A stretch of DNA of 64,000 nt from Gordonia tangerina (GTDB lineage: Bacteria > Actinomycetota > Actinomycetes > Mycobacteriales > Mycobacteriaceae). The notes beneath the pieces are model-generated. The model ran no database searches. It was given only the letters and a program-made list of their open reading frames with translations, and was not told the DNA's origin. This document shows positions 43,727 to 64,000 of this stretch, piece by piece. The stretch spans positions 1-64,000 of the forward strand of contig NZ_JAKGCU010000014.1 in assembly GCF_021556435.1 (NCBI RefSeq), written 5' to 3'. A program made the position numbers and the translations under genes. Each line of letters begins with the position of its first letter. Positions within the stretch are counted from its first letter, which is position 1.

Positions 43727-43745
43727 GTAAGGTAGGCTAAGCTAA
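43727..43745. promoter_or_regulatory. IdeR/DtxR iron box upstream of the esterase-NRPS operon
   Basis: GTAAGGTAGGCTAAGCTAA matches the 19-bp iron box TTAGGTTAGGCTAACCTAA at 15 positions, including the whole TAGGCTAA core. It lies 38 bp before the preferred ATG at 43784, and 5 bp before an in-frame ATG at 43751. It implies repression of the operon by iron-loaded IdeR/DtxR. Confidence 0.8.
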
Positions 43746-43783
43746 CTTGCATGTGTAGGGGTGTTTCCGGTTTGAATCGACTG

Positions 43784-44845
43784 ATGACATCCTCGGCGCC
43801 GTTTTCAGGGGCGCGTTGTGAAGCTCAGCGAACCTCGCCACGACGCCCACGGTGGTTCGGGCGCACGGTGATAGCGGCGATTCTGCTCACCGTGGTGATG
43901 TCACAGTTCGGGCCCGGACCGGCCGACGCGCGCGACCCCGACCAGCGCGCCACGCTCACCGGGCTGACTCAGGTCGACGGGACCCTCTGGCAGATGATCG
44001 TGCGATCGCCGGCGATGGGGATCGACATTCCGTTTCAGGTGATCCGTCCGGCCGGTGCCCCAATCGGCGCACCCACCCTATATCTGCTCAACGGCGCCGG
44101 CGGGGGAGAGGACGGGGCCAACTGGCTCGCGCAAACCGACGCCCAGCAGTTCTTCGCCGGCAAGTTCGTCAATGTGGTGATTCCCGCACGCGGTCTCGGT
44201 AGCTACTACACCGACTGGATCGCCGCCGATCCGCAAGTGGGGCAACCGATGTGGGCCACCTTCCTGACCGATGAGCTGCCCGACGTCGTCGATGACGCAT
44301 TGGGCACGAACGGTCGCAATGCCATCGCCGGACTGTCGATGTCGGCGACGTCGGTACTCGACCTGGCGACCATCGCGCCGAGCCTGTACCGGTCGGTGGC
44401 CTCCTACAGTGGCTGCGCCCGCACCAGTACCCCGGAGGGCGAGGCCGCAGTCCGGGGCATCGTCTACACCGCTGCCGGTGGCAATGCCGACAACATGTGG
44501 GGTCCGACGGGATCGCGGCAGTGGCGCGCACACGACCCGTATGTCAACGCCGAGAAGCTTCGCGGAACCCACCTCTACCTGTCCAGCGGCAGTGGTGCAC
44601 CGGGACGGTACGACACGCCGAGCGCGCAGGCGCCGGGTGCCCCGCCGATCGCCAACCAGATCCTGGTCGGCGGCGCGTTGGAGGCGGCCACCCGCGCGTG
44701 TACCGAGGCGATGGCGAACAGGTTGCGGCAGTTGTCCATTCCGGCGCAGGTGCACCTCCCATCCACCGGCACCCACTCCTGGGGGTACTGGCAGGACGAG
44801 TTGCACCGGTCCTGGCCGACATTGGCGGCAGGGCTCGATGGCTGA
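43784..44845 (+). CDS. Secreted PF00756-type esterase (Ag85/IroE-like)
   Basis: A 353-residue exported alpha/beta hydrolase. An Arg-rich start and hydrophobic TVIAAILLTVVMSQFG form a signal peptide with likely cleavage near ADARD. The catalytic serine lies in AGLSMSATSVLD and the histidine in GTHSWGYWQDELHRSWP, the block shared with mycolyltransferases of the antigen 85 type. The same esterase family contains Fes, IroD and IroE, which hydrolyse catecholate siderophore esters. An iron box precedes it and NRPS genes follow, so siderophore processing is a good hypothesis; mycolyl transfer is the main alternative. The in-frame ATG at 43751 is also possible. It overlaps the next gene by 8 nt. Confidence 0.83.
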   Translation: MTSSAPFSGARCEAQRTSPRRPRWFGRTVIAAILLTVVMSQFGPGPADARDPDQRATLTGLTQVDGTLWQMIVRSPAMGIDIPFQVIRPAGAPIGAPTLYLLNGAGGGEDGANWLAQTDAQQFFAGKFVNVVIPARGLGSYYTDWIAADPQVGQPMWATFLTDELPDVVDDALGTNGRNAIAGLSMSATSVLDLATIAPSLYRSVASYSGCARTSTPEGEAAVRGIVYTAAGGNADNMWGPTGSRQWRAHDPYVNAEKLRGTHLYLSSGSGAPGRYDTPSAQAPGAPPIANQILVGGALEAATRACTEAMANRLRQLSIPAQVHLPSTGTHSWGYWQDELHRSWPTLAAGLDG

Positions 44846-47372
44846 GCCGGCCACCACGGTCGCCCGGTGGCGCGCGGTAGCCGGCCGTTACGCGGATGCG
44901 ATCGCGGTGCGCAGCCCGGATGGTTCGCTCACCTATGGTGCGGCCCGTGATCGCGCCGACGAACGCGGCCGCGCGCTGGCCGCCGCCGTCGACGAACCTG
45001 GCCGGCCGATCGCCGTCGACGTCGAGTCCGATGTCGACTCTGTCCTTGCCGTGCTGTCGGTGCTCTGCTCCGGCCATCCGGTGATCCTGCTGGACCCGCT
45101 GTTGCCCGCGGAGCGGCGCGAACACATCCTCGCATTTTCGGGGGCCCGACGGTTCGATCCCGCGTCAATGGCAGCGTTGCCCCCGTCCGACGCTCCGGTG
45201 CCCGAGCCCGACCCGATCGATCCGTCGATCCTCATCTTCACCTCCGGCTCCACCGGAAAGCCCAAGGGGCTCATCCACTCCCAACGAGGCTGGGTCAACC
45301 AGGCCACCGACGGTCGCGAGTTCCTCGGTCTCGGGCCGGGTGATCGGATGGCCGTGCTGTTGCCGATCAGCTTCGGTGCCGGCGTCGACTGCCTGGTGAT
45401 GGGTTTGCTCAACGGGGCCACCCTCCTGCTGTGGGATGTGCGCCGGCGCACCACTACCGGCCTGCGTGACTGGCTGTGTGCCGAGGCCGCGACCACCGCG
45501 CACTGCACGCCGTCGCTGCTGCGGTCGTGGCTCGGTGACCTCGACACCGACGCCGCACTCCCTGAACTGCGCCTGCTGTCGACCTGTGGTGAACCCGTCC
45601 GCGGTGCCGATGTGACCCGGGTGCGGCGCACCGTGATGCCGTCCGGCACGTTCTGCAGCTGGTCGGGTTCCTCGGAGATCGGCAATCTCGCCTTCAACCT
45701 CTTCGGGCCGGACCGCGCAGTGCCCGATGGGGCCGTGGCGGTGGGCATTCCGGCCGGTGACAAGCATGTGCGGATAGTCGACGACAACGGCGACGATGTG
45801 GACGCCGGCGACGTCGGGGAGATCGTGGTGGAGTCGGGTCACCTGGCGTCGGGTTACCACAACGACCCCGAGCTCACGGCGCAGCGGTTCGAACCGATCG
45901 GAGATGGCCGGTCGCGCTTGCGCACCGGAGATCTGGGCCGTTTCGATGACAGTGGGATGCTGCATCTGCTGGGTCGGCGTGATGATGCGATCAAGGTTCG
46001 GGGCTACCTGGTGGAGCCCGCCGAGGTGGAGACCGCGCTGCGCGCGATGCCGTGGACCGTCGACGCCGTGGTGTCGGCGAATACCGAACGTACCCAACTC
46101 ATCGCCCACGTCGCCGTTGATCCGTCGAAGTGGACTCCGTCGCCCGCTGAAGTTCGGACAGCGCTCGCCACGACGCTGGCGCCCTGGATGATTCCCCGTG
46201 ACGTCGTCATCATGACCGAGCTCCCGCGAAATGAACGCGGGAAGGTGGACCGGGTGGCGTTGCCGGAGCCGGCGGCCCGGCCGAAGCCCGATCCACCCCG
46301 CGGCCCGACCGAGTCGATGCTCGCCCTTCTGTGGCAGGAGATTCTCGGACTGGACCAGGTCGGACGGCAGGAAGATTTCATCACGCTCGGTGGCGACTCA
46401 CTCGCCGCGGCAACCATGATCGCCGACATCAATCATCGGTTTCAGGTCGAACTCGATACCGGCCTGTTGACGCAAGCGCCGACCGTTGCCGAGTTCGCCC
46501 AGCATCTCGATGCTGCTAACGAGAGTCGTGAGAAGACGGCAACTCCGCGCACGCTCGTCCGGCTGCGCGAGGGCGTGGGCAGCCCGCTGTTCCTGGTGGC
46601 CGGGGCAGGCAGTCTGGCAACGAGTCTGACGCCATTGGCACGTGCGCTGGCCACGCCACGGCCGGTCTACGGTGTTCAAGCCCGTGGGATCGAGGGCCGC
46701 GGTCGTGCTGACCAGTCGATTCGCGCCGCCGCCAGACGATTGATCCGGGATGTGCGATCGGTGCAACCGCGGGGGCCATATCTGCTGGGAGGCTATTCGT
46801 GGGGCGGTTTCGTAGCGATCGAGGCCGCCGCGCGCCTGTCCGCTTCGGGTGAGCACTGCGAGAGTGTGATCGTATTGGACTCCATCATCGATCCCATCCT
46901 GGCCGCAGCAATCAGTGATCCGAAGCGAAGGAGACGCTGGCGGGTCGCGGTCGATCCGGCGCCGGCAACTGTGACCGGAGCTCTGCCGGATCGCTCGGGT
47001 AAACCGTCGGTCGGGGTCGAGACACGCTCGCGATGGCAGATCGCCTGGAATGTTGTCGTGATGAACGTGCTGATGTCTGCCGCCGGCTTGGTGAGGCTAC
47101 CCACGACACTGCAGTGGACGGTGTTCTTCGATCTGGGAACGCGAATGATCCGGCGGCACCGGCCTGTACCCTTCCCAGGCGACATCATGCTGATCCGATC
47201 ACGTAGCAACACAGATGATCTCAGCCTTTGGCGGCATTTTTCGCTCGCTGCGGTGCGTCCAGTGGATGTGTCCGGAGATCACCATTCGATGGTTCGGACG
47301 CCCTACGTGAGCGAAACCGCCAAAGCTGTGGGAACCGCTATCGGTGAAAGAGTGCAGGAGGGTGCCCGGTGA
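44838..47372 (+). CDS. Nonribosomal peptide synthetase, A-T-TE, with atypical adenylation domain
   Basis: The 844-residue protein has no condensation domain. An adenylation domain (about 1-480) carries FTSGSTGKPKGLIHSQ and YRTGD-like RLRTGDLGRF; a carrier domain (about 495-570) has DFITLGGDSLAAATM; a thioesterase (about 580-844) has GGYSWGGF and a late DHHSM. The binding pocket is unusual: where amino-acid A domains have FDxxxxE it reads FGAGVDC, losing Asp235, and the usual YGPTE is SGSSE. Loss of Asp235 suggests a substrate without an alpha-amino group, such as a keto, hydroxy or beta-amino acid. A-T-TE architecture recalls ralfuranone and atromentin synthetases that use aryl keto acids. 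Its end overlaps the glycosyltransferase start (GTGA). Confidence 0.85.
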   Translation: MAEPATTVARWRAVAGRYADAIAVRSPDGSLTYGAARDRADERGRALAAAVDEPGRPIAVDVESDVDSVLAVLSVLCSGHPVILLDPLLPAERREHILAFSGARRFDPASMAALPPSDAPVPEPDPIDPSILIFTSGSTGKPKGLIHSQRGWVNQATDGREFLGLGPGDRMAVLLPISFGAGVDCLVMGLLNGATLLLWDVRRRTTTGLRDWLCAEAATTAHCTPSLLRSWLGDLDTDAALPELRLLSTCGEPVRGADVTRVRRTVMPSGTFCSWSGSSEIGNLAFNLFGPDRAVPDGAVAVGIPAGDKHVRIVDDNGDDVDAGDVGEIVVESGHLASGYHNDPELTAQRFEPIGDGRSRLRTGDLGRFDDSGMLHLLGRRDDAIKVRGYLVEPAEVETALRAMPWTVDAVVSANTERTQLIAHVAVDPSKWTPSPAEVRTALATTLAPWMIPRDVVIMTELPRNERGKVDRVALPEPAARPKPDPPRGPTESMLALLWQEILGLDQVGRQEDFITLGGDSLAAATMIADINHRFQVELDTGLLTQAPTVAEFAQHLDAANESREKTATPRTLVRLREGVGSPLFLVAGAGSLATSLTPLARALATPRPVYGVQARGIEGRGRADQSIRAAARRLIRDVRSVQPRGPYLLGGYSWGGFVAIEAAARLSASGEHCESVIVLDSIIDPILAAAISDPKRRRRWRVAVDPAPATVTGALPDRSGKPSVGVETRSRWQIAWNVVVMNVLMSAAGLVRLPTTLQWTVFFDLGTRMIRRHRPVPFPGDIMLIRSRSNTDDLSLWRHFSLAAVRPVDVSGDHHSMVRTPYVSETAKAVGTAIGERVQEGAR

Positions 47373-48187
47373 CGGATTCGTGTGGTGTGGTTGCCGTGAT
47401 CTCGTCTTACGAGCCCGATGCGGGCCTTGTGGCGACGGTGGATTCGGTCATCGGGCAAGTCGACCGCGTCGTGATCGTCGATGACGGATCACCGTCTTTG
47501 ATCGGCGATCCCGCGGGGACGGTGCGAGCCGTGCTTGACCGGTGTGCCGAGGTCGGCGCGACCGTGCTGGAGAGCGGAGACAACCGTGGGATCGCCAGCG
47601 CGCTGAATCGAGGCGTGACCAACGCGCTCGACGGTGGTGCTGACCTGATCTTGACACTCGATCAAGACACGGTCCTCGATGTCGACTACGTACAGCGGAT
47701 GGTCGCGCATCGCGAACTGGCAGCGTCCGTCGGCATCACAGACATGATGGTCGCGCCGAGTGAGATCAACGGTGAGGTGGCGCCATTCTGGTTCGCCCAC
47801 CGCGGACTCACACTGGCCTTCGAACCTCTTCAGTCGGGGATGCTATTTTCCCGCCGGCTCTTCGAGTTGATCGGCCTCTTCGAAGAAGGCCTGTTCATCG
47901 ACTGCGTAGAGACCGAGTTCTATCTCCGCGCGCGAGCACGCGGTGTGCACGCGCTGATCGTTCCCGGAACATGTATCCATCATCGATTGGGTCACCCCGC
48001 GACCTGGACAGTGCCGCGGCCCCTGCGCTGGGCGCTGGGCAGACGAGGTTCGGTGCGACCGTGGAGTTCACCGAAGACGCACCGTTCCGGCACTACTACA
48101 TCGCGCGAAATCGACTGGTCCTCTACCGCCGATACGCTCGAACCGAGCCGCTGTGGTGCGCGGTCTCCATCGCCAAGGACACATTGA
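47369..48187 (+). CDS. GT2-family glycosyltransferase, 3' part shifted out of frame
   Basis: A 272-residue product as read. Residues 1-225 form a GT-A fold like rhamnosyltransferases: VVAVISSYEPD, the nucleotide-sugar site VIVDDGSPS, LTLDQDTVLD with a DxD-type motif, and a QSGMLFSRRLFELIGLFEEG acceptor region. From about 48045 the frame turns into low-quality sequence, while the expected continuation FRHYYIARNRLVLYRRYA appears in the +2 frame of the next ORF. Either a genuine frameshift or a sequencing error has separated the gene from its tail. The GTG at 47369 has AGGAGG at 47356 and overlaps the synthetase stop. Confidence 0.8.
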   Translation: MTDSCGVVAVISSYEPDAGLVATVDSVIGQVDRVVIVDDGSPSLIGDPAGTVRAVLDRCAEVGATVLESGDNRGIASALNRGVTNALDGGADLILTLDQDTVLDVDYVQRMVAHRELAASVGITDMMVAPSEINGEVAPFWFAHRGLTLAFEPLQSGMLFSRRLFELIGLFEEGLFIDCVETEFYLRARARGVHALIVPGTCIHHRLGHPATWTVPRPLRWALGRRGSVRPWSSPKTHRSGTTTSREIDWSSTADTLEPSRCGARSPSPRTH

Positions 48188-49248
48188 GTCGGGGCAGGGC
48201 GATGCTCATCGGGTCGCATCGAGTATCGCGAATTTACCTGACTGCCAGTGGTTTCCGTGCCGGTATCAAGGGTGACACTGGGCGTATCCCCGCCCGTACT
48301 CTCGCGCGTAGTCGGGGTCGAGGGGTGTCACATCCAAGTGAGGAACGGCGGGCACGTCACGCGCGTCGCAGGCCGCGTGCGGTGTCGGTGGTGATCCCAG
48401 CGCGCAATGCGCGAAATCTTATCGATCGCCAACTAGAAGCGCTCGCGACCCAAGACTATCCTGCCGGATTCGAAGTTCTGATCTGTGACAACGGCTCTCG
48501 AGATGGCCTGCGTCGGCATATCGAGACCCATCGACTCCGCGAGAAGTTGCAGATGAAGTGGCTCGATGCCTCCGAGCGGGCGGGTACCTCGTTTGCGAGG
48601 AACGTTGGTTCCAGAGCTGCGGCTGGTGATCTGATTGTCTACTGCGATGCAGATGACATGGTGCATCCCCAATGGCTCCGTCATATGGTCGAGACCGCAG
48701 GGTTTCACAATGTGGTCAGCGGTGGGGTCGAGACCACCTCGTTGAACGCACCTGAGGTCGCGAGTTGGCGTCCGATGCCCGACGCCGAGGAGCCTTTCGA
48801 GTTCCCCGGTTTCATGAATGTCGTCAGCGGCTGCAACATGGCGTGCTGGCGAGATGACTTCATGGCTGTCGGGGGATTCGACGAGACTTATGTCTCGGGC
48901 TACGAAGACGCGGACTTCGCGCTGCGCGTACAGCTGCGGGGCGGAACGGTGGGCCATGCACCCGAAGCGCTGGTCGGATACCGGCTTCGTGAAACCCTGC
49001 GTGGAACATTCTCCCAATCTGCGCAGTATGGTTTGGGGAACGTACAACTGTACGCAGACTATCGGGACTACGGCATGCCCAGGCGGCCAGTCATAGCACT
49101 CCTGGACGTCCTGCTCTATCTGACTTTGAGAAATCCTTTGCTGCCCGAGGTGGTCACGAGAGTTCCGGCCGGGCGCTGGCTGTTTCAGGCAGGGCACCTG
49201 CTGGGCCGCATCAAAGGCAGCGTGCGTTACGGCTGCTTCTACGTCTGA
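47971..49248 (+). CDS. GT2-family glycosyltransferase (with the displaced tail of the preceding GT at its N-terminus)
   Basis: The open frame codes for 425 residues. The first about 120 (including FRHYYIARNRLVLYRRYA) look like the missing C-terminus of the preceding glycosyltransferase; a second GT-A domain starts near residue 137 with RAVSVVIPARNARNLIDRQ, then LICDNGSRDGL, the metal-binding VYCDADDMVHPQW and the catalytic SGYEDADFALRV. No stop lies between the two parts, so the undisturbed gene may encode one two-domain glycosyltransferase of about 626 residues. If the second domain is translated alone, GTG at 48325 or ATG at 48202 region are possible starts. It ends 3 nt from the convergent exporter gene. 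Confidence 0.8.
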   Translation: MYPSSIGSPRDLDSAAAPALGAGQTRFGATVEFTEDAPFRHYYIARNRLVLYRRYARTEPLWCAVSIAKDTLSRGRAMLIGSHRVSRIYLTASGFRAGIKGDTGRIPARTLARSRGRGVSHPSEERRARHARRRPRAVSVVIPARNARNLIDRQLEALATQDYPAGFEVLICDNGSRDGLRRHIETHRLREKLQMKWLDASERAGTSFARNVGSRAAAGDLIVYCDADDMVHPQWLRHMVETAGFHNVVSGGVETTSLNAPEVASWRPMPDAEEPFEFPGFMNVVSGCNMACWRDDFMAVGGFDETYVSGYEDADFALRVQLRGGTVGHAPEALVGYRLRETLRGTFSQSAQYGLGNVQLYADYRDYGMPRRPVIALLDVLLYLTLRNPLLPEVVTRVPAGRWLFQAGHLLGRIKGSVRYGCFYV

Positions 49249-49251
49249 TTC

Positions 49252-50109
49252 TCACCCCCGCAGCGCCGCACGGCGGTATCCGATCAGGGTGGGGCCGGTG
49301 AACAACACCAGCAGTGCTGCCGACCATGCGGTCGTCAGCATCAGCGGCTGCATCAGTTCGCCACCGGTCGCCATCGCTTTGATGGCCTCCACCCCGCAGC
49401 TGAGTGGTTGATACTCCACGATCGGGCGTAACCAGGCCGGATATGCGTCGGCAGGCACGAAACCGGTGTTGAAGAACATCGCCAGGTTGGTCCCGATCGC
49501 CACCCATTCGACGATGTGAGAGTCGCGCGACAGCAACGCCATCGCGGTCACCATCATCGAGAACGACAGGCCGAAGGCCATGGCGACGGCCAGGATGCCG
49601 AGGTAGCCGAGGATGCCGCTCTCGATGCGGAATCCGATGATCGTACCCACCAGCAGGATGAAGCTCACGGTGACCGCCACGCGTACCGCCTCGGCCGCGA
49701 GCCGGCCCGTCATCGCCGCGGCCCGGTGCACCGGCAGCGTCCACAGCCTGGTGAGCAGACCCGACGTGCGTTCTCGCCGCAGACCCAGCCCGCTGATCGA
49801 CGCCCCCGACATCGCACCGATCAAGGCGACCATCGGCACCATCCCGAACGCGTACGAGGTGCCGGAGCGATCACTCACCGAGCGATCGAGGACCAGCCAG
49901 AACAGCAGCACCATCAGCGCCGGGAAGAGCAGCGATTGCAACAGGGTGGCGGGATCCTTGGTCCACTTCACCAGGATTCGCTGGGCCTGCAGAGCCGCGC
50001 CGCGCAGCAGCGCGGTCGAGGTCGGCTCCGGTGTCCACAGGTCACGCTCGGGGAAGGGGAGCGGTCCGGTCGCAGTGGTGGCGATGTCGGACGTTGTTGC
50101 GTGCTTCAT
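49252..50109 (-). CDS. ABC-2 exporter permease (DrrB/DrrC-like)
   Basis: A 285-residue membrane protein with six predicted helices (LFPALMVLLFWLVLDRSV, MVPMVALIGAMSGASISGL, and four more) and the ABC-2 signature ALLSRDSHIVEWVAIGTNLAMFF with FVPADAYPAWLRPIVEYQPLS. It is one of two half-permeases in a DrrABC-type exporter. The ATG at 50109 overlaps the TGA of the upstream permease gene (ATGA). Together with the ATPase it is divergent from the giant NRPS across two iron boxes, so it likely exports the peptide product. Confidence 0.9.
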   Translation of the reverse strand: MKHATTSDIATTATGPLPFPERDLWTPEPTSTALLRGAALQAQRILVKWTKDPATLLQSLLFPALMVLLFWLVLDRSVSDRSGTSYAFGMVPMVALIGAMSGASISGLGLRRERTSGLLTRLWTLPVHRAAAMTGRLAAEAVRVAVTVSFILLVGTIIGFRIESGILGYLGILAVAMAFGLSFSMMVTAMALLSRDSHIVEWVAIGTNLAMFFNTGFVPADAYPAWLRPIVEYQPLSCGVEAIKAMATGGELMQPLMLTTAWSAALLVLFTGPTLIGYRRAALRG

Positions 50110-50930
50110 GTGTGGGCCCGCCGATGGGTCTGGGTGTGGTGAGCGATACCGACGAACACCACGGCGAGAGCGCCGAGCCACACCAGCGCCGGCAGTGCGG
50201 TGTGCATCGTCGGTTCACCGGCGGCCAGTTCCCGCATGGTCGCGGCGAAATGTGAGATCGGCTGGTTGCGGGCGAACGGCTGGGCCCAATCGGGGAAACT
50301 GTCTTCGGGGACGAATCCGGTTGACAGCAGCCCCAGCACCAGCTGTGGCAGCACCAACAGCTGCGAGGTGGCCTCCGGACTTCGGGCGATCAAACCGAGC
50401 GAATCCGCGCCGATGGCCAGGACCAGTCCCAGCGCCAACGCGAAGGTGACGAAACCCAGTGTGTCCAGCGGATCTCCGTCGAACGAAAAACCCAGCAGTG
50501 CCCCGAACACCAGCGCCGCAACCATCGAGATCACCGATCTGATCATCGAGGTGCTCATCCGGGCGAACAACGGAACGAGCGGGCGAACGGGCATCGACGC
50601 CATCCGGCGACTCATGCCGCGCAGCTTCTCCAGCGTCGCCCGTTGCGCTGCGGCGACAGCGGTGAATGCAATCGCCTGCAGCACGATGATCGGCATGAGG
50701 AACTGCGCGTAGTCGATACCCCGGTCGGCCATGATCAGCCGCAGCGGTAGATAGAAACCGAGCGCGAACACCATCGGCATCACCACTGCGATGACGAATT
50801 CGCCCTCGGAGTGGGCCGAGCGAACGGCACGTCCGGTTGCCGCGACCCACTGCCGCCAGAACACCGGACCGCGGACGAATACGGCCGGGTCGGATCGGTC
50901 CGGCCACACGACCGGGAGATGCGCCGTCAC
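50106..50930 (-). CDS. ABC-2 exporter permease (DrrB/DrrC-like)
   Basis: A 274-residue membrane protein with six predicted helices and the ABC-2 layout, homologous to its neighbour: FVIAVVMPMVFALGFYLPL near the N-terminus, then QLLVLPQLVLGLLSTGFVPEDSFPDWAQPFARNQPISH. It overlaps both neighbours by 4 nt (ATGA), so ATPase and both permeases are made in step. The heterodimeric pair plus DrrA-type ATPase is the arrangement used for polyketide, glycopeptidolipid and siderophore export in mycobacteria. Confidence 0.9.
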   Translation of the reverse strand: MTAHLPVVWPDRSDPAVFVRGPVFWRQWVAATGRAVRSAHSEGEFVIAVVMPMVFALGFYLPLRLIMADRGIDYAQFLMPIIVLQAIAFTAVAAAQRATLEKLRGMSRRMASMPVRPLVPLFARMSTSMIRSVISMVAALVFGALLGFSFDGDPLDTLGFVTFALALGLVLAIGADSLGLIARSPEATSQLLVLPQLVLGLLSTGFVPEDSFPDWAQPFARNQPISHFAATMRELAAGEPTMHTALPALVWLGALAVVFVGIAHHTQTHRRAHT

Positions 50931-51940
50931 CCGCCGACACCCACGTGGTCACCGGGCGGGCCGGTGAGGGTCAGGAAGACGTCGTCGAGGGTCGGCTTGC
51001 GCAGACCCACATCGAGCAGCCGCACACCGGCGGTGCGCGCGAGCGCGATCACCTGCTCCATGGTCGCCACGCCGTCGGGTGCGGTGAGAGTGACCGCACC
51101 ATTCGCCGAGACCGAAGGCCGATGTGCCGCACCGAGTTCACCGGCGATGGCCGCAACGAGCGTTGCACTCTGGGTGGGATCATCGAGGATCGCCTCGCAG
51201 TAGGTGCCGCCGACCTGCTGCTTGAGTGAGTCGGCACTTCCCTCGGCGACCACACGTCCGCGGTCCATCACGATGATGTTGTCGCTGAGCAGATCGGCCT
51301 CCTCCAGGTACTGCGTGGTGAGCAGGGTGGTGATGCCATCGGCGCGCAGCGTCTCCACCAGTGACCACACTGCCTGCCTGCTGCGGGGGTCGAGGCCCGT
51401 CGTCGGTTCGTCGAGAAACACCACCGATGGCCGGGTGACGAGGCCGCACGCGATGTCGAGGCGTCGGCGCATGCCGCCGGAGTAGGCGTACACGGGCCGC
51501 TTGGCGGCATCGGTCAAACCGAATCGTTCCAGGAGGTAGTCGGCACGTTCGCGGGCGGCGCTTCGCCGCAGACCCAGCATGCGGGCGAAGAAGACGAGAT
51601 TGTCGCGGCCGCCGAGGGTTTCGTCGAGCGCCGCGTACTGTCCGGTCATCGAGATGGCGTTGCGGACGCCGGCCGGATCATCGATCAGATCATGTCCACA
51701 CACCTGCGCAGACCCGGAATCGGGCTGGATCAATGTGCACAGCACGTCCACCAGGGTGGTCTTCCCGGCCCCGTTGGGCCCCAGGATGCCCAGTACCCCG
51801 CCGCGCGGCACATCGAAGGACACACCGTTGAGGGCATGGACCGATTCGAACGACTTGTGCATGTCGCGAACCTTGACGGCCAGATCTACAACTTGCGTTG
51901 AGGCTTTGTCGCCCTTGGGATTACGAGGACGGACGTCCAT
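50927..51940 (-). CDS. ABC exporter ATPase, DrrA-like
   Basis: A 337-residue ATPase with Walker A GILGPNGAGKTTL, Q-loop SMTGQYAALDETL, signature YSGGMRRRLDIA, Walker B PSVVFLDEPTTGLDP and the H/Q-loop TTQYLEEADLL. The C-terminal extension ending LRKPTLDDVFLTLTGPP is diagnostic of the DrrA subfamily. The ATG at 51940 (MDVRPRN) has GGAAAG just upstream; ATGs at 51955 and further upstream are alternatives. Two tandem iron boxes lie about 115-155 bp upstream, so the exporter is expected to be induced under iron limitation together with the NRPS. Confidence 0.93.
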   Translation of the reverse strand: MDVRPRNPKGDKASTQVVDLAVKVRDMHKSFESVHALNGVSFDVPRGGVLGILGPNGAGKTTLVDVLCTLIQPDSGSAQVCGHDLIDDPAGVRNAISMTGQYAALDETLGGRDNLVFFARMLGLRRSAARERADYLLERFGLTDAAKRPVYAYSGGMRRRLDIACGLVTRPSVVFLDEPTTGLDPRSRQAVWSLVETLRADGITTLLTTQYLEEADLLSDNIIVMDRGRVVAEGSADSLKQQVGGTYCEAILDDPTQSATLVAAIAGELGAAHRPSVSANGAVTLTAPDGVATMEQVIALARTAGVRLLDVGLRKPTLDDVFLTLTGPPGDHVGVGG

Positions 51941-52052
51941 GGCTTTCCTACCCATCCTGCTACTCTCGACAGTGCCTCTTTCAGTGGTCAACGTAGCAAG
52001 GTTCATAGGGGCCATGAACCTCACGCTCGTTGACAGCGGGCAGACCGACACA

Positions 52053-52071
52053 ATTGGTTAGGCTAACCTTT
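52053..52071. promoter_or_regulatory. IdeR/DtxR iron box, exporter side
   Basis: ATTGGTTAGGCTAACCTTT shares the TAGGCTAA core and 15 of 19 positions with the iron-box consensus. It is centred about 125 bp upstream of the DrrA-like start, on the exporter side of the divergent region. Confidence 0.8.
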
Positions 52072-52076: not shown

Positions 52077-52095
52077 GTAGGTTACCCTAACCAAA
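52077..52095. promoter_or_regulatory. IdeR/DtxR iron box, NRPS side
   Basis: GTAGGTTACCCTAACCAAA matches the 19-bp iron box at 15 positions. It is the second of two boxes 24 bp apart centre to centre, and ends at a short ORF that precedes the NRPS. Tandem boxes allow separate or cooperative control of the two divergent units. Confidence 0.75.
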
Positions 52096-52199
52096 TGTCA
52101 TTGCGGTCTGCGTGCCACCCCAGCGCCCAGTCGGACGACTGCCAGCGGGTCCGCAGAGAGGCACTCGGAGAATGTCCCCGACAAGTGATGCGTGAGTGA
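52095..52199 (+). CDS. Possible 34-residue upstream ORF before the NRPS
   Basis: An ATG at 52095, at the edge of the iron box, opens a 34-codon frame with three cysteines (SACHPS, DDCQRV, GECPRQ) that stops at 52199 and overlaps the NRPS GTG at 52192 by 8 nt. If translated it would couple to the NRPS start. It is not MbtH-like, and no family is recognised. The frame is short and may be chance. Confidence 0.25.
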
Positions 52200-55100: not shown

Positions 55101-58100
55101 GCTGACGGCGGAGATCTTCGCCGAGGTTCTCGGTGTCGGGGAGGTCGGTCGGACCGACGGCTTCTTCGCGTTGGGGGGCAACTCCCTGATCGCCACCCAG
55201 GTGGTGGCGGCGATCAACGATCGTCTGTCGACCACGGTTCCGGTGCGCTGGATCTTCGAGGCCCCCACGGTGGCGGCACTCGCCGAACGGGTCGAGCAAC
55301 AACCGGGTGGCGACGACGGCCCGCAACTGCGGCCGCTGCCCGACGACGGTCGCGTCACCCCGCTGTCGCCCGCGCAGCACCGGATGTGGGTGATGAACCA
55401 ATTCGATCCGGACTCGGCGATGTACAACATCCCGATCGCATTGCGGTTGCGGGGGGCCATCGACATCGATGCGCTCAGCGCTGCGGTGGCCGACCTCATC
55501 GAGCGGCACGAACCGTTGCGCACCATGTACCCGGACACACCCGACGGGCCGGTTCAGCAGGTCCTCGACATCGCCGACCTGCCTGTCGGGCTCACTGATC
55601 TCACGCGTACCGTCCGCACGGTCGCAGAGTCCGAACTGTCCGCAACCCTGGTGGAACTCGCCGACTCCGGATTCGATGTCGCTGCCGCACCGCCGATTCG
55701 GGTACATCTGCTTCGCATCGCCACCGACCACCATGTGCTGTTCTGCGTGGTGCACCACATCAGTGCCGACGGGTCGTCGACCGCGCCACTGGCCAGGGAC
55801 CTGGCGGTGGCCTACCGGGCGCGCCGCGAGGGGACACCGCCGGCGTGGCCACCGCTGCCGGTGAGCTACCGCGACTACACCCACTGGCATCACGATCTGA
55901 TGGGCAGCGAGGCCGACCCCGACTCGACGGTCGCGCGGCAACTGGACTACTGGCACCACCAGCTCGCAGGCCTGCCGGAACGGCTCGAGTTGCCCACCGA
56001 TCGGCCACGTCCGGCGGCCCTGCGCGGGCGGGGCGGGGAAGTGCGCACGCAGCTGTCGCCGACAGTGGTGTCAGGTCTGAGAGCGCTGGCCGAGTCCACC
56101 GGAACCACGCCGTTCATGGTGGCGCACACGGCCCTCGCGGTGACGCTGGCACGGTTGACCGGCAGCGACGACATCGCCGTCGGCACGCCGGTTGCCGGGC
56201 GTGGTCACCGGAACCTGGTCGACCTGGTCGGCATGTTCGTCGGAACCGTGGTGTTGCGCACCCGCTTGCGTCCCGGCGACGACTTCCGAACCGTGCTCGC
56301 CGCCGTCCGCGAGACCGACCTCGACGCGGTCGAACGCGCCGACATCCCGTTCGACCGGCTCGTCGACCTGATCAATCCGATGCGCTCGGCCGCGCATCAC
56401 CCACTGTTCCAGGTGGGCTTCTCGTATCAGAACATGGCGCCCACCCACGTGACCCTCGACGACCTGGATGTCGAGGTGATCGAGCAGCCGTCCGGTGTCG
56501 CGAAATCCGAACTGCACCTGACCATCACCGACACCGACTCTGGGATGTCGGTGCTGTGGGACTACGACCGCGCCCTGTACGACCGCTCCACCGTGGTCCG
56601 ATGGCACGAACTGTTCACAGCTGTGGTCGAGGCCGCCGCCGCCGATCCGAGCTGTGCCGTCGGCGATCTCGCGGCAATCGACATCACCGGTGCGGCACTG
56701 GTCGCACCCACCGCGCCCGCTGTCATCGACGGGGTACTGGTGGGAGACACGGCCGAACCCGGTGCGGACACGCTCACCGCTCTGCTGGATGCGGCAGCTG
56801 ACAGCTCTCCCGACGTGGTCGCGATCTGGAGTGAGGCCGCCGGCGCCGCGGTCGAATCCACCTATCGGGCAATGACATATCGGACACATCGGCTCGCCCG
56901 CCTCCTGATCGACGCCGGGGTGGGACCGGAGAGCCGGGTGGTGGTGGCCATGGCGCGCTCGCCCCGGTTGGTCGAGGCGATCCTGGCCGTCCTGCGTGCC
57001 GGCGGAGCCTACGTGCCGATCGACCCGGACGCACCCGTCGACCGCACCGCCCTCATCGTCGACGCCACCGCGCCGTGCGCGATCATCACCGACGCGGACG
57101 TCTCGCACCTGAGGGTGCCGACCACCGCCGTACTGATCGACCTCCGAACCGCCGAGGTGGACAGATTCGCCGGCCATCCAGTCACCGACGCCGACCGCCG
57201 CGGGCCGTTGCGGGCCGACAACACCGCTTACGTCATCCACACCTCGGGGTCCACCGGTACCCCCAAGGGGGTGGTCGTCTCACACGGTGCGATAGCGACC
57301 CAGTTGAGATGGAAGCGCGCCGCCCATCGGATCGGTGCCGCCGACACCGTACTGCTCAAGACGCCTATCACCTTCGACTTGTCGGTGTGGGAACTGTTCT
57401 GGCCGTTGGTGTCCGGCGCACGCCTCGCGATCGCCGCGCCCGGTGGTCAGCGCGATCCGGCCTACCTCGACGCGCTGAGCACCCGCGCCGGGGTGACCGC
57501 CGCGCATTTCGTCCCCTCGCTGCTGGAGGCCTACCTCGACGCGCGTGCCGACGATCCCGGAGCCGGAGACCATGCACCCGGCACCATTCTGTGTATCGGC
57601 GAAGCGTTGCGCCCGGTCACGGCCCGCCGCGTCGCAACCGAATTCGGTGCTCGTGTGGTGAATCTCTATGGGCCCACCGAAGCCGCCGTCGGCATCACCG
57701 AACATGCCTGGCACACCGATGATCACGCGCCGGTGACGGTGCCGATCGGCCGACCGGTGACCGGCTCCGATGCGCTGGTGCTGGACCGCCGGCTACATCC
57801 GGTGCCGGCCGGGGTCACCGGCGAGCTGTACCTGGCCGGTGCACAATTGGCGGCCGGTTACCAGGGTCGTACCGATCTCACCGCCGGGCGGTTCGTCGCG
57901 GACCCGCGGGCTGTGGGACGCCGGATGTACCGCACCGGTGACCTCGTTCGGGTGAATGCCGATGGCGACCTGGAGTATCTGGGCCGAAACGACTTCCAGG
58001 TGAAGATCCGCGGACAGCGCATCGAGCTGGGGGAGATCGAACAAGCTCTCCTGCGCGACCCCGCGGTCAGCGGCGCGGCGGTGGCCGTCGCGCGTGGTGA

Positions 58101-61100
58101 CGCCCTGATCGCCTACCTGGTCCCGTCATCGGGTGCGACCGTCGATCCCGACGACATCCTGGCGCGTCTGCGCACGGTGCTACCCGCCTACATGGTGCCG
58201 ACAGCGGTGGTGTTGCTCGACGAACTGCCCCTGGGTATCCACGGTAAGCTGGACCGTTCTCGCCTGCCGGCGCCGACGTCGGCCGCGACGACGTATACCG
58301 CACCGGCCACCCACACCGAACACGCGATCGTGGATGTGCTCACCGAACTGCTCGACGGCCGGGTCGCCGACGAACAGCCGATCGGTCGGGACGACTCCTT
58401 CTTCGCGCTCGGCGGCAACTCCCTGCTCGCCACCCGGTTCGCGGCCCGGATCGGCCGCCGACTGGGCCGGGATGTCCCGGTGCGGGCGGTGTTCGAGGCA
58501 CCCGTGATCGCCGACCTCGCCCGCTGGGTGGACGACGCCGCGGTCAGCGACCGGCCGGCCGTCGGATCGCTGCCCCGCCCGGAGGTGTTGCCGCTGTCGC
58601 GTGCGCAGCATCGGATGTGGCTGATGGAGCAGTTCGCGCCGGGAACCGGCCTCTACAACCTGCCGTTCGCCGTGCGGCTCACCGACACCCCCGATCCGGC
58701 CGCGTTGCGCGCCGCGCTGGCCCACGTCATCGGGCGGCACGAGGTGTTGCGGACGATCTATCCGGCCGACGGCGGGGTGCCGCAGCAGCGAATCCTGTTG
58801 ACCGAAGAGGCCATCGCCGGCGCCGACATCAGTTTGGACGCCACGGAGATCACCGAACGTGAACTGAGCGCAGTCATCACCGCGATCGCCGCCGACGGTT
58901 TCGACCTGTCGGCCGCGATCCCGCTGCGCGTGCGCGTACTGCGCACCGAGGACGACTCGACGGCGCTGGTGGTGGTGCTGCATCACATCGCAGCCGATGG
59001 CTGGTCGTTCGGACCGCTGCTGCGGGATCTCCTCGGGGGCTACCTCGGCGTGGACGACGCACCTGCGCTACCGGTGCACTACGCCGACTTCGCGGTGTGG
59101 CAGACGCAACTCCTCGGCGACGATGACCACCCGGCCCACCCGTCGCTGCAGCGCCAGCGCGAGTACTGGCGCGATGTCCTCGCCGACCCACCCGGCCCGC
59201 TGCCGCTACCCGTCGATCGGCCGCGCCCGGTGCGCCCCACGCATCGGGGCGACACCATCGACACGCACCTCGATGTCGAACTGGTCGCCGCGGCCGACGA
59301 CTTCGCACGCAGCCGACAGGCATCGCTGTTCCACTTGCTGCACACCGCGCTCGCCGTCACCCTCGCCCGTCTGAGCGGTACCACCGACATCGCCATCGGT
59401 ACACCGGTGTCCGGGCGAGGCGCCGCCGAACTCGACGACCTGATCGGCATGTTCGTCGAAACAGCCGTCCTGCGTACCCGGATCGACGAGTCGGTGAGTG
59501 CCGATGAGCTGCTGCGGCACGTTCGCGACGTCGACGTCGCCGCGCTCGCCAACAGCGAGGTGCCGTTCGACGAACTCGCGGCAGAACACGAACCCGACCG
59601 CGGCGGTGCACATCATCCGCTCTTCGGGGTGATGCTGGCCGTCGGAGACCCGGCGCCGGTCATCGACGGAGCCGCACTGATCGATGTCGAACTCCCGGTG
59701 GCGCGTTTCGACCTGCACGCCACGGTGGATCTCCCCGCAGACGGCTCGGCACCCGAGGGCGGGGTGCGGATGCGCTGGACCTACGCCACCGACCTCTTCG
59801 ACCGCGCGACGGTGACGCAGGTGGCCGAGATGTTCCGCGCCGTCGTGGCCGGACTGATCGCCCAACCGGCCCGCGCGGTGCACCGGGCCGCGGCCCCGGC
59901 CACGGACGTCGCCGACACGAACCTCGCCGAGTGGGGGCGCACACCCGCACCCGCACCGGTTCTCGGCGACCCTCACCCGATGCGCACGCTCGCCGGACTG
60001 CTGCCCGTCATGGCCGCGCGCAACCCCGATGCCGTTGCGGTGGTGACCGATACCGAAATCGTCAGCTTCACCGACTTCGCGGCCCGGGTGGCGCGCACCG
60101 CCCGCAGGCTGATCGCGGCCGGCGTCGAACCCGAACGCACAGTCGCGGTGGAGGTCGAGCGGTCGCTGGACCTGCTGGTCGCCGTGCACGCCACCGTCGC
60201 CGCAGGCGGCGCCTACGTGCCCGTCGATCCGTCCTGGCCGGCCCAGCGCATCGAGGCCATGCTCGATGCCGTACGGCCCATCGTCGTGGTCGCCCGCGAC
60301 GATCGTCACCTACCCGCAGACCTGCACTCGGCCGTCATCGACCCCGCAGATCCCTGCTGTGAATGGCCGGACACACCGGTCACCGATGCCGACCGCCGTG
60401 CGCCGCTGCGGCCGGAGCATCCCGCCTACGTGCTGTTCACCTCCGGGTCCACCGGTACGCCGAAGGCCGTGGTGGTGTCGCATGCCGGCATCGTCAACCG
60501 CCTCGATTGGATGCAGACCGCATATCCGATCGACAACACCGACGTGATCCTGCACAAGACTCCGGCCACCTTCGACGTGTCGGTGTGGGAGCTGTTCTGG
60601 GGCTTGGCCGCCGGCGCTCGTACGTTGCTCGCACCCGCCGATGCCCACCGCGACCCCTACCAGATCGCGGAGTTGCTGCGCGATCACGCGGTTACCGTGG
60701 TGCATTTCGTACCGGCGATGCTCGACACCTTCCTCGCCGCCCTACCCGCCGATGCGCGGTTCCCGGCGTTGCGGCACGTCGTGACCAGCGGGGAGGCCCT
60801 GGGCTCACCGGCGGCGGCAGAACTGTTGTGCCGCACTCCAGCTGCTCTGCACAACCTGTACGGACCGACCGAGGCCGCCGTCGACATCACCGCCACCACT
60901 GTCGGCCCCGAGGACATCGTGGACCGTCCGGTGTCCATCGGCCGGCCGGTGCCCGGCGGCGAGGTGATGGTGCTCGACCGCTACCTGCGTCCGGCGCCTC
61001 TCGGGGTCACCGGTGAGCTCTACCTCGGCGGTGTCCAGCTCGCCCGCGGCTACCACGGTCGTGGTGACCTCACCGCGGCCCGGTTCGTCGCCTCACCGTG

Positions 61101-64000
61101 GGGCGACGGGCAGCGGTTGTACCGTACCGGCGACCTCGTGCGCTGGCGGTCCGCCCCGCAGGAGGGTGCTGCTCCAGTGTTGGAGTACTTGGGCCGCAGC
61201 GACTTCCAGGTCAAGATCCGTGGCCAGCGGGTGGAGCTCGGCGAGATCGAGACCGTCCTGGCGGGGCATTCCGCGGTGGCTGCCGCCGTAGTGGTGGTGC
61301 ACACCGATCCGCAACTGGGTGACCAACTGGTCGCCCATGTGGTGGGCCGTACCGACGCCGACCCGGTCGACGTGGCGCAACTGCGTGCGCACCTGCGGGC
61401 GACGCTGCCCGAACACATGGTGCCCGCACACATCATGCCGGCCACCGCATTGCCCATCGGCACCAGCGGAAAGGTCGATCGTCGCGCGCTGCCCGCACCC
61501 ACCCGATCCGCCGCACAGGGCCGGTCTCGCGACCCGCGCACGGAGTCGGAGCGCACGGTGCTGGCGGTGTTCACCGATGTACTCGGTGTCGACGTCGGCG
61601 TGGACGACGACTTCTTCTCCGCCGGTGGCAACTCGCTGGTGGCGACGCGAATCGTTGCCGGCGTCGAGCAGCGGCTCGGCGTGCTGATACCGGTGCGGGC
61701 GGTGTTCGACGGTCGTACCGCGGCGGCGGTGGCCGCCGCCGCCGACGCACTCGAGGCGACTGCGGACGCGACGGCCGCCGTCGTACTGCCGCCCCGGCCG
61801 GCCGAGCTGCCGCTGTCTGCGGTCCAGCGGCAGATGGTGTTGCACAACCGTATTGATCCCGACTCGGCCGCCTATCGCATCGTCGCGCCGGTGCGTGTGC
61901 CGCAGGCCATCGACATCGGCGCGCTGCAGGCCGCACTCGCCGATGTGCTCACACGGCACGAGATCCTGCGCACCGTCTACCCCGACGGCGGCAGTGGGCA
62001 GCCGATCCAGCGGATCATGGAACCGGATCGCGAGTTGAGCGCGCACCTCATCCGCGTGCTCGATGACGTGGCACCCGACAGCGGGTCGGTCGAGCAGGCG
62101 TTGATCGCCGCCGCCCTCACCGAACCGATCGATCTGAGCACCGACCTGCCCGTGCGGCTGCTGGTACACGCCGTCGACGCCGCCACTACGACGGTGCTGC
62201 TGATGGTCCATCACGTCGCGGCCGACGGATGGTCGCTACGCATCCTGGCGCGCGATCTGACGGATGCCTACACCGCACGGCTCGGTGGGCTGGCGCCCGA
62301 ATGGGCGCCGCTGCCACTGCAGTATGCCGACCACGTACTGCGTACCGACGCGCGACTCGGCGAGGTCGACGACGACACATCCTTGGTGTCCGAGCACTTG
62401 CGCTACTGGCGGTCGGTGTTGGCCGGTGCGCCCGCGTTGTCGGTGCCCGAGGCGGATTCGGATGCGCAAGCGGGACCGACTGGCGCGGTGGAACGGACGG
62501 CGCTCGACCCCGCGATCTGGCAGCGTGTCGCCGATCTGGCCGATCGCCATCACACCACCGCGTTCGCGGTGTTGCACGCGGCGTTGGCCGTCACGCTGGC
62601 CCGCTCCGGCGCAGGCCGCGACATCGTGATCGGCACCCCGACCGCAGGCCGATGGGAGCCCGACGTCGCGGACCTGATCGGCATGTTCGTCTCGTTGGTG
62701 GCCCTGCGCAGTGACGTCGACGAGGCCGGCAATTTCGCTGCCGTGGTGGATCAATCGCGCGATCAGATCGTGTCGGCTATCGAGCATGCGGCCGTCGATG
62801 TGGAGCAGGTCGTCGACGACCTGGGGCGCTCGCGCGGCGACGGGCGTCACCCGCTGATCCAGGTGACATTCACCGTCGACGGTGCCGAGCACCCGGCTGC
62901 CGACCTCGAATCTGTTGCTCCGCAACGTCTGGACGTGCCGATGGCACGATTCGATCTGGAGTTCACCGCATTCGCCGGCGAAACCGGGGCGCCTGCCCTC
63001 GAACTCGTCTACCGGCCCGACGTGTATCGCGCGGACACCGCGCGCACACTGCTGACCCGATTCGCTACCGCCGTCGCCATGTTCACCGCAGTCCCGGACG
63101 CGACCTTGCGGACCGTCGAAATCCTCACCGCGCAGGAACGACGCGCACTCGACGGCGCCGCCGGACCCGCAGCCGCCACGCCGCGGTACCTGGCCGAGAT
63201 CCTTAACACACCCGGTCACCGCCTGGTCGGCTGCGACCCGTGCGCGTCCGACCCGACGGTGCTGCGGGAGCTGGGCGAGGATGAACTGCGTTGCGCAACC
63301 GACGAACTCGCTGCGCGTCTGCGGGCGGCGGGTGCCGGACCGGAGGTCGTGGTCGCGCTGTACCTGAGCCGTTCGATCCGCTTCTACACCGCGCTGCGAG
63401 CGGTGGCGTCCACCGGCGCGGCGTTCGTGCCGATCGACCCGCGCCAGCCCGACGACCGGGTCGCGTTCATGCTGCAAGACTCGGGAGCGGCCATCGTCGT
63501 CACCACCTCCCAGCAGCGGGATCGCTGCGCCGCAGAGACATTGGCCGGTGTCAGCGAGGTGATCGAACTCGACACCGTGGCATCGCGCCGGTCGTCGCAG
63601 CCGCCGACCCCGGTCCGGCGACATGTCGACCAGCTCGCCTACCTGATCTACACCTCCGGGTCCACCGGACGGCCGAAAGCGGTCGCGGTCACCCATCGCG
63701 GACTGTCGGCATTCGTCGCCGAGCAGCGCCGCTACGGTGTCAGGGCCGACAGCCGGGTACTGCATTTCGCGTCCCCGGGGTTCGATGCGGCCATCCTGGA
63801 ACTGCTCCTCGCCGCCGACGCCGGCGCGACGTCGGTCATCGCGCCGACGGATGTTTACGGGGCCGAGGACCTGCGCGGTGTCCTCCACGAGCAGCAGGTG
63901 ACACACGCCTTCCTCACCCCCGGTGCACTCGACACGATCGAGATACCGGTGGTCGACGCGATTGCCCAGGACCCCCTACCGCGCCTCGAGGTGCTGATCG
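52192..64000 (+). CDS. Giant nonribosomal peptide synthetase, C-A-T-C-A-T-C-A-T-C-A..., incomplete at window end
   Basis: The frame from GTG 52192 stays open to the window end, over 3,930 residues. Module 1: C with HHIVLDGYG at 143, A with YTSGSTG at 622, carrier serine 998. Module 2: C HHISADG at 1188, A TSGSTG near 1684, serine 2077. Module 3: C HHIAADG at 2264, A near 2750, serine 3148. Module 4: C HHVAADG at 3340, A at 3820, then cut. No epimerase or methylase domain is seen. Pocket codes read by hand (last Lys assumed): A1 DALFIGAVMK (hydrophobic, unassigned; A4 begins DALF), A2 DLWHLILVGK (Ser-like variant), A3 DVWHVSLVDK (serine). C1 resembles the EntF condensation domain, with [13 protein letters not shown] and [11 protein letters not shown], which suggests an aryl or acyl starter. 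Iron boxes upstream point to a siderophore. Confidence 0.95.

What the first reader, a model, noticed from the sequence alone, without database searches (positions are those of the whole stretch)
43727..64000. Iron-box-controlled NRPS locus with three boxes and two transcription fronts
Three iron boxes, each matching 15 of 19 consensus positions, precede the esterase/A-T-TE/GT operon, the DrrABC exporter and the giant NRPS. Biosynthesis, decoration, export and esterase are therefore predicted to form one iron-starvation response. The combination of genes does not match heterobactin, rhodochelin, mycobactin or desferrioxamine loci that I know.
Basis: partly seen in the sequence, partly recalled or inferred. 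Interest (0 to 1): 0.75.

Follow-up and report, generated by a model that had tools for sequence, protein, structure and literature searches.

The report
Iron-box-controlled glycopeptide synthetase locus in Gordonia
A soil-bacterium gene cluster that probably makes a sugar-decorated, iron-scavenging peptide is switched by iron boxes kept in relatives, and it carries a relative of the enzymes that move cell-wall mycolic acids where a plain esterase had been expected.

Summary
The boxes are real: 15, 15 and 16 of 19 positions; simulations gave none of 15 or better. At the same two fronts of ten loci, this one included, 16 of 20 regions hold a box of 14/19 or better; the best permuted control reaches 7. 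The locus is conserved in 9 of 59 Gordonia and in Rhodococcus globerulus, so one iron-starvation unit is well supported.

Corrections. The "esterase" is a Cmt1/antigen-85-type mycolyltransferase relative. The NRPS runs past the window to 69552, followed by another GT2. The NRPS ends in an ordinary C domain and the A-T-TE lacks one, so they could form a split module.

The chelating group is not encoded beside it. The A-T-TE family is linked to an iron-box cassette for 3-amino-4-hydroxybenzoate, inside this locus in G. sihwensis but unlinked in this genome. Three of the nine Gordonia lack it.

Best reading: an undescribed iron-regulated glycosylated (aroyl or acyl) peptide siderophore; product unproven.

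The parts
43727..43745 (+). iron box 1, 15/19, front of the mycolyltransferase/A-T-TE/GT operon
   Evidence: a box of 14/19 or better at this front in 8 of 10 loci, this one included
43751..44845 (+).
   Evidence: PDB match to Cmt1 (8qhf, 4h18) E 3e-64, PS1 6e-42, antigen 85 6e-26 to 6e-21; Ser of G[LM]SMS, Glu of GG[AL]LE and His of GTHSW kept in 7 of 7 aligned copies (their catalytic role is recalled)
44838..47372 (+). stand-alone A-T-TE protein (844 aa); the A domain lacks the amino-acid-binding Asp (FGAG in place of FDxS)
   Evidence: Ser654, Asp681 and His815 of the TE invariant in 13 of 13 (triad role recalled)
47369..48055 (+). GT2 glycosyltransferase a (rhamnosyltransferase-like), 5' part; the reading frame changes near 48030-48055 in this genome
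   Evidence: TIGR01556 78.6 bits, below its cut-off; one frame in 8 of 8 Gordonia relatives
48052..48324 (+). 3' part of glycosyltransferase a, in another frame
48325..49248 (+). GT2 glycosyltransferase b (MftF-like, 118 bits, below cut-off)
49252..50181 (-). ABC-2 permease, DrrC-like
   Evidence: Pfam; TIGR01248 130 bits, below cut-off
50106..50930 (-). ABC-2 permease, DrrB-like
   Evidence: Pfam; TIGR00025 130 bits, below cut-off
50927..52051 (-). DrrA-type ATPase (start may be about 51940-51955)
   Evidence: TIGR01188 346 bits, above its cut-off
52053..52071 (+). iron box 2, 15/19, in the divergent DrrA/NRPS promoter
52077..52095 (-). iron box 3, 16/19, in the divergent DrrA/NRPS promoter
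   Evidence: a box of 14/19 or better at this front in 8 of 10 loci, this one included
52192..64000 (+). giant NRPS: five C-A-T modules, the first C of starter type, and an orphan C-terminal C domain; continues to contig position 69552 (5786 aa), followed by GT2 c at 69549-70412

Best explanation
This is a conserved iron-starvation locus of mycolate-bearing actinobacteria that makes, decorates and exports a glycosylated N-acyl or N-aroyl peptide, most likely a siderophore. Shown by sequence: iron boxes at both fronts, conserved in relatives; a starter-type first C domain; five modules whose substrate codes are nearly fixed across eight genomes; a C-terminal orphan C domain; a separate A-T-TE; GT2 enzymes; a DrrABC-type exporter; a Cmt1-type acyltransferase relative. 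Inferred: with iron present, IdeR/DtxR bound to the boxes represses both fronts; when iron falls, both open. The peptide core (position 3 probably Ser; the others not assigned) is started with an aryl or acyl group. The orphan C domain and the A-T-TE together act as a sixth, split module, whose A domain takes a non-alpha-amino (probably aryl) acid, and the TE releases the chain. The GT2s add sugars, DrrABC exports it, and the Cmt1-type enzyme works on it outside, adding or removing an acyl (perhaps mycolyl) group. The iron-binding group is most likely the aryl acid, made in this genome by a separate iron-box cassette on C24 for 3-amino-4-hydroxybenzoate and perhaps its hydroxylated form.
For: Boxes: 15, 15 and 16 of 19 with no chance expectation; 16 of 20 promoter regions of ten loci hold 14/19 or better. 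Of 2000 permuted palindromes, the 2 that reached 16 were the true half-site drawn again; the best other one reached 7, mean 0.13. Same gene order in 9 of 59 Gordonia and, for the A-T-TE to NRPS stretch, in R. globerulus. Two strong PF01325 (DtxR-type) hits in the genome. First C domain nearest in the PDB to 7c1k (RzmA starter C, name recalled), CDA-C1, ObiF1 and EntF and to the MxcG model, 304 bits. Last C domain nearest to 5u89 (DhbF, name recalled), far from epimerases. Codes of modules 2 and 5 identical, and of modules 3 and 4 within one residue, in 8 of 8 five-module NRPSs; module 1 alike in 7 of 8. A-T-TE linked to 3-amino-4-hydroxybenzoate genes: GriH occurs in 16 of 59 Gordonia; 12 of these 16 stretches hold an A-T-TE and all 16 a box of 14/19 or better. 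In G. sihwensis the cassette sits inside this NRPS locus with boxes of its own. The window's A-T-TE shares 6 of 9 pocket positions with the GriH-linked copies of 6 Gordonia and 2 Rhodococcus.
Against: No chelator-making gene among those scanned in the locus; no Lys/Orn-oxygenase match and no MbtH gene on contig C5. G021, G026 and G049 have the locus but no GriH gene. The closest A-T-TE relatives, at the aftA/emb locus, share 8 of 9 pocket positions with the window's in all 11 copies read (L058 was not read), yet none of those 11 genomes has GriH, so the acid may not be the AHBA type. The GriH-linked A-T-TEs of 5 other Gordonia have a different pocket, GANFITWA[LI], 4 of 9 shared, and the window's A-T-TE is not in the GriH-linked clade. 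No uptake gene belongs to the conserved cluster. All nine genomes also have a salicyl- or DHB-type aryl ligase, so a second siderophore is not strictly needed. The first glycosyltransferase frame is broken here, so this strain's copy may not be fully working.
Confidence: 0.55

Rival explanations
1. An iron-regulated surface glycolipopeptide (envelope or biosurfactant component) that is not a siderophore: the starter C adds a fatty acyl chain, the GT2s add sugars, DrrABC exports it and the Cmt1-like enzyme acylates it, and the cell simply changes its surface when iron is short.
For: First C domain closest in the PDB to 7c1k (RzmA starter C, recalled as acyl-initiating) and CDA-C1. Envelope-type genes throughout: GT2, DrrABC, mycolyltransferase relative. 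Modules 1 and 4 have hydrophobic-type codes (reading recalled). The closest A-T-TE relatives sit between aftA and the emb genes of arabinogalactan synthesis in 11 Gordonia stretches.
Against: No fatty acyl-AMP ligase or free carrier protein among the genes scanned in the locus (small frames were not scanned). The first C domain also matches the MxcG/EntF models. In G. sihwensis five aryl-acid-type genes with boxes lie inside the locus.
Confidence: 0.27
2. A siderophore locus whose cap is salicylate or 2,3-dihydroxybenzoate taken from the pathway of the mycobactin-type cluster, with the A-T-TE serving some other role.
For: All nine Gordonia with the locus carry an aryl-AMP ligase scoring 556-618 bits (best per genome) on the DHB-ligase model, below its cut-off of 724, while GriH is present in only 6 of 9.
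Against: In this genome that ligase lies in its own cluster on C21 with its own boxes. It does not explain why the A-T-TE is kept in the operon in all ten loci, nor the G. sihwensis cassette.
Confidence: 0.1
3. The locus is cryptic or decaying in this strain: the boxes are inherited, but the broken first glycosyltransferase stops the finished product.
For: Frame change in the first GT2 near 48030-48055, with one frame in 8 of 8 Gordonia relatives. A relative, G049, has an NRPS of only three modules and no box at the Drr/NRPS front.
Against: The 5786-aa NRPS frame and the other genes are open, and one frame change in a 66-contig draft may be an assembly error.
Confidence: 0.08

Closest known systems
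Catecholate/aryl-capped siderophore synthetases (EntF enterobactin, MxcG myxochelin, DhbF bacillibactin)
   Same: Starter-type first C domain matching the MxcG and EntF models, an A-T-TE unit with EntF among its matches, iron boxes
   Different: Five modules plus a possible split sixth; GT2s; DrrABC; Cmt1-type enzyme; no DHB ligase above the curated cut-off in this genome or the 8 relatives; A-T-TE is a separate protein with no Asp in its A4 motif
Salmochelin (iroBCDE; recalled)
   Same: General plan: glycosylated siderophore, exporter, alpha/beta-hydrolase
   Different: The GTs here are GT2, whereas IroB is a GT1-type C-glucosyltransferase (recalled); the hydrolase is Cmt1-like, and no Fes/IroE relative was among its PDB matches
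Heterobactin, rhodochelin, rhequichelin (Rhodococcus)
   Same: NRPS siderophore loci of Mycobacteriales; named in PMC5550956 (passages seen)
   Different: Hydroxamates needing an ornithine hydroxylase (recalled); no PF13434 match on this contig, and only 21 weak ones (50 bits or less) in the genome
3-amino-4-hydroxybenzoate pathways (grixazone GriI/GriH; bagremycin/ferroverdin BagB-C/FevI-H; platensimycin PtmB1-B3; roles recalled)
   Same: The unlinked C24 cassette has the aldolase (NF005556, above cut-off), a DHQ-synthase-II family protein (NF002625, above cut-off; BagC/FevH model 420 bits, below its cut-off of 750) and a PobA-type hydroxylase
   Different: Here with iron boxes and genetically tied to an A-T-TE with GT2s and flippases, or in G. 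sihwensis to an NRPS
Mycobacterial glycopeptidolipid loci (recalled)
   Same: NRPS plus glycosyltransferases making a surface glycopeptide in a mycolate-bearing genus
   Different: GT2 enzymes, Drr rather than MmpL export, iron boxes; the comparison is from recall, nothing was aligned

Membership tests
IdeR/DtxR-controlled locus | 19-base iron box at the promoters | tested here: met
   15, 15 and 16 of 19; conserved at both fronts in relatives
IdeR/DtxR-controlled locus | A DtxR-family regulator in the genome | tested here: met
   PF01325 hits at 79 and 75 bits on C22, a third at 29 bits on C19
IdeR/DtxR-controlled locus | Measured iron response of the genes | not testable with these tools
   needs RNA from cells grown with and without iron
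NRPS siderophore cluster | Modular NRPS in one open frame | tested here: met
   six C domains and five A domains in 5786 aa
NRPS siderophore cluster | Chelator genes (hydroxylase or aryl-acid synthesis) in the cluster | tested here: not met
   none among the genes scanned in this genome's locus; an AHBA-type cassette inside the locus only in G. sihwensis among the nine and unlinked here
NRPS siderophore cluster | Ferric-siderophore uptake gene in the cluster | tested here: not met
   nearest FecCD/binding-protein genes about 11-17 kb downstream, with a 14/19 box; no FecCD or binding-protein match in the 34-55 kb stretches of the 8 relatives, G025's stretch ending about where it would begin
Heterobactin/rhodochelin-type hydroxamate siderophore | Ornithine N-hydroxylase in the cluster | tested here: not met
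   no PF13434 match on contig C5
Mycobactin/nocobactin | Salicyl-AMP ligase, lysine N-hydroxylase and NRPS/PKS set | tested here: not met
   aryl-AMP ligase, several NRPS frames, a weak PF13434 hit and a siderophore-interacting protein are on C21, not here
Antigen 85/Cmt mycolyltransferase | Sequence match to solved mycolyltransferases | tested here: met
   Cmt1 E 3e-64
Antigen 85/Cmt mycolyltransferase | Ser-Glu-His catalytic residues | tested here: met
   G[LM]SMS, GG[AL]LE and GTHSW kept in 7 of 7; assignment by recalled antigen 85 motifs
Antigen 85/Cmt mycolyltransferase | Mycolyl transfer activity | not testable with these tools
   needs an enzyme assay
Aryl-acid-activating A domain (A-T-TE) | No Asp at the amino-acid-binding A4 position | tested here: met
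   FGAG in the window; F and both G invariant in 13 of 13
Aryl-acid-activating A domain (A-T-TE) | Linked to an aryl-acid pathway | tested here: inconclusive
   12 of 16 GriH stretches hold an A-T-TE and all 16 a box, but 3 of 9 NRPS-locus genomes lack GriH

The most novel reading that the evidence does not exclude
Mycolate-bearing actinobacteria have an undescribed iron-starvation strategy built on a stand-alone A-T-TE enzyme. It loads an iron-binding aryl acid (3-amino-4-hydroxybenzoate-derived) and delivers it either to a glycopeptide (this locus) or to lipid-linked glycans (the GriH/A-T-TE/flippase/GT2 loci). The Cmt1-type enzyme of this locus then ties the exported, glycosylated siderophore to the outer membrane by a mycolyl ester, giving a cell-surface iron trap.
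Probability: 0.15. Interest if true: 0.82.

Novelty: new variant of a known kind. Interest (0 to 1): 0.55.

Why it matters
If right, Gordonia makes a glycosylated siderophore beside its mycobactin type, and a relative of the cell-envelope mycolyltransferases takes part in iron acquisition; one search for that pairing listed no such report. The linked finding, iron boxes of 14/19 or better in 16 of 16 Gordonia stretches that carry a GriH gene, gives an experimentally simple entry: the aryl precursor can be labelled. Searches that listed no report of such a locus: (open-licence PMC only; listings seen).

Tried and rejected
Considered and dropped. (1) Fes/IroE-type esterase: the Cmt1 match. (2) Hydroxamate siderophore: no PF13434 match on the contig. 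(3) The downstream FecCD/binding-protein operon as part of the cluster: no match in the stretches of the 8 relatives; G025 has the neighbouring PurK gene at the same place, but its stretch ends about where FecCD would begin. (4) Substrate calls beyond Ser for module 3: the codes DALFIGAVMK, DLWHLILVGK, DALFIGAIMK and DLWPLILVSK are conserved, but I have no reference set to name them. (5) The A-T-TE at the aftA/emb locus as iron-controlled: no box of 14/19 or better in the 12 stretches (L059 only 5 kb). (6) Rfam and tRNA scans of the window: nothing.

Limits. The promoter regions were placed by hand after the boxes had been seen. Gordonia loci were found through the A-T-TE (E at most 1e-60), so a locus with a diverged A-T-TE would be missed. 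Counting it, locus and GriH co-occur in 6/10 against 10/49 (Fisher p 0.018) instead of 6/9 against 10/50 (p 0.009); neither figure corrects for relatedness. The pocket code of the A-T-TEs rests on my alignment of motifs. Structure prediction and fold search were not used.
Full report
WHAT WAS CHECKED. The window is positions 1-64000 of contig C5 (130,379 bases) of a 5.29 Mb genome in 66 contigs.

BOXES. Against the recalled consensus TTAGGTTAGGCTAACCTAA the window holds three sites of 15/19 or better: 43727 (15), 52053 (15), 52077 (16). Markov simulations of the window give 0.03 sites of 14/19 or better per 64 kb and none of 15/19 in 100 runs of each order. At 3 mismatches or fewer the whole genome has two sites and the backward control none. 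As positive controls, on C21 a 15/19 box stands before an aryl-AMP ligase gene and another before a siderophore-interacting protein gene, in what looks like a mycobactin-type cluster (not scanned gene by gene).

CONSERVATION. The A-T-TE was searched in 59 Gordonia genomes; 36 of 59 had a match at E at most 1e-60. Twenty stretches around the best matches were fetched and compared. Nine genomes, this one included, have the block A-T-TE, two GT2s, DrrCBA on the other strand, divergent NRPS, GT2 after the NRPS. R. globerulus NBRC 14531 has A-T-TE to NRPS in the same order. The mycolyltransferase relative precedes the A-T-TE in 7 of the 9 Gordonia; in G021 and G026 it is not there and a box stands directly before the A-T-TE. 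Over ten loci and two fronts, 16 of 20 regions hold a box of 14/19 or better, 8 of 10 at each front. The misses are G004 (12 and 13) and, at one front each, G033 (13) and G049 (9). Of 2000 permuted palindromes only the 2 identical to the true half-site reach 16; the best other reaches 7.

WHAT THE GENES ARE. 43751-44845: the best solved relatives are Cmt1 (E 3e-64), PS1 and antigen 85; 7 of 7 copies keep Ser, Glu and His. The genome holds about a dozen paralogues, the nearest 51% identical. 44838-47372: A-T-TE; the A domain reads FGAG where amino-acid domains read FDxS, so it should take an acid without an alpha-amino group (rule recalled). 47369-48187 and 48325-49248: GT2s; the first changes frame near 48030-48055, while in 8 of 8 Gordonia relatives the two parts share one frame. 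49252-52051: two permeases and a DrrA-type ATPase. NRPS: five C-A-T modules, the first C nearest to 7c1k (212 bits; RzmA starter C, name recalled), CDA-C1 198, ObiF1 150, EntF 143 and to the MxcG model, 304 bits, and a final ordinary C domain (5u89 188 bits; TycA epimerase about 28). Codes: DALFIGAVMK, DLWHLILVGK, DVWHVSLVDK (Ser type, recalled), DALFIGAIMK, DLWPLILVSK (on a recalled ruler). In the 8 five-module NRPSs (this one included) modules 2 and 5 are identical, modules 3 and 4 vary at one place, module 1 varies by I/V only except in G033; G049 has only the last three modules; the R. globerulus NRPS was not complete in its stretch and was not read. So one product family is expected. Since the NRPS ends in a C domain, and the operon encodes an A-T-TE without C, a split sixth module is the simplest reading; it is inference.

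WHERE THE CHELATOR MAY COME FROM. In G. sihwensis (G037, L056) five extra genes lie between the GT2s and DrrC, with boxes at 8439 (14/19), 10450 and 13018 (15/19): a GriI-like aldolase, an arylamine N-acetyltransferase, a PobA-type hydroxylase, a luciferase-like flavin monooxygenase and a GriH-like DHQ-synthase-II. This genome has PobA, GriI, GriH and the monooxygenase together on C24 with 15/19 boxes. GriH occurs in 16 of 59 Gordonia. All 16 stretches hold a box of 14/19 or better; 12 of 16 hold an A-T-TE (11 of the 14 stretches L186-L199, plus G037); the four without are G018, G025, G052 and this genome. PobA was not found in 3 of the 6 stretches where A-T-TE directly follows GriH (L188, L189, L191). 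The pocket of the window's A-T-TE (GADHSCWNL) shares 6 of 9 positions with 6 of the 11 Gordonia copies linked to GriH outside this locus (GGDH[ACG]CRNL) and with two Rhodococcus copies (GGDHTCLNL); the other 5 read GANFITWA[LI] and share 4, or 3 for the one ending in I. It shares 8 of 9 with copies lying between aftA and the emb genes (GGDHSCWNL), and in the tree it groups with those (support 0.999), not with the GriH-linked clade. Of the 12 genomes with such a copy among the fetched stretches only G018 has GriH; in 11 of the 12 the aftA, A-T-TE, aroQ, emb order was confirmed, the twelfth stretch being too short. NRPS-locus genomes have GriH in 6 of 9 cases against 10 of 50 others (p 0.009, uncorrected); G021, G026 and G049 have none. 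So the AHBA link is suggestive, not settled. Salicylate or 2,3-dihydroxybenzoate from the other cluster's pathway, whose type of ligase all nine have, is the main alternative cap.

MECHANISM AND VERDICT. Shown: iron boxes at both fronts; conserved gene set; enzyme families. Inferred: repression by IdeR, aryl cap, split module, sugar addition, export, extracellular acyl transfer, iron binding.

LITERATURE. PMC5550956 (12 of 19 passages seen) names rhequichelin, heterobactin, rhodochelin and rhequibactin for Rhodococcus, and a saccharide cluster with arabinogalactan enzymes, GT2s and O-antigen transporters; the terms iron box, IdeR and glycolipopeptide do not occur in its main text. PMC9680422 (passages seen) surveys 531 Gordonia clusters; the term iron does not occur in its main text. 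Searches listed no paper on such a locus (open-licence PMC only; listings seen).

Noticed in passing
L167 (own C24:15000-34999) 8179-13815 and L080 (own C22:8000-24000) 5181-13500; together in L186-L191, L096, L113: An iron-box system apparently separate from the NRPS: GriI, GriH, a second A-T-TE, flippase-like proteins and GT2s, with PobA in some (3 of the 6 Gordonia) and a flavin monooxygenase in the two Rhodococcus. Contiguous in six Gordonia and two Rhodococcus, split over two contigs here. It looks like an iron-regulated aryl-glycan pathway.
   Followed up: partly
L041-L045, L047-L050, L052, L058: An A-T-TE close to the window's lies between aftA and the emb arabinogalactan genes, near a type II dehydroquinase, in 11 stretches, with no box of 14/19 or better.
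   Followed up: partly
window 48030-48055: Frame change in the first GT2 gene; one frame in 8 of 8 Gordonia relatives.
   Followed up: partly
L054/L072 (G049): NRPS reduced to the last three modules, starter C not found, and no box at the Drr/NRPS front.
   Followed up: partly
own C5 about 81000-87700 (L009 17000-19940, L082 2639-3709): FecCD permeases, an ABC ATPase and a Peripla_BP_2 binding protein with a 14/19 box just upstream.
   Followed up: partly
own C33:95448 (L078 7449): The genome's only other box with at most 3 mismatches stands before a 407-aa gene with a THUMP-like domain.
   Followed up: no
own C22:314974-315939 and C44:119573-120601: Two further Cmt1-like paralogues lie within about 1 kb of condensation-domain matches.
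   Followed up: no
L123, L148 (Micropruina): A-T-TE and PobA-like genes with boxes of 16-17/19 in an organism of another order (the order is recalled).
   Followed up: no
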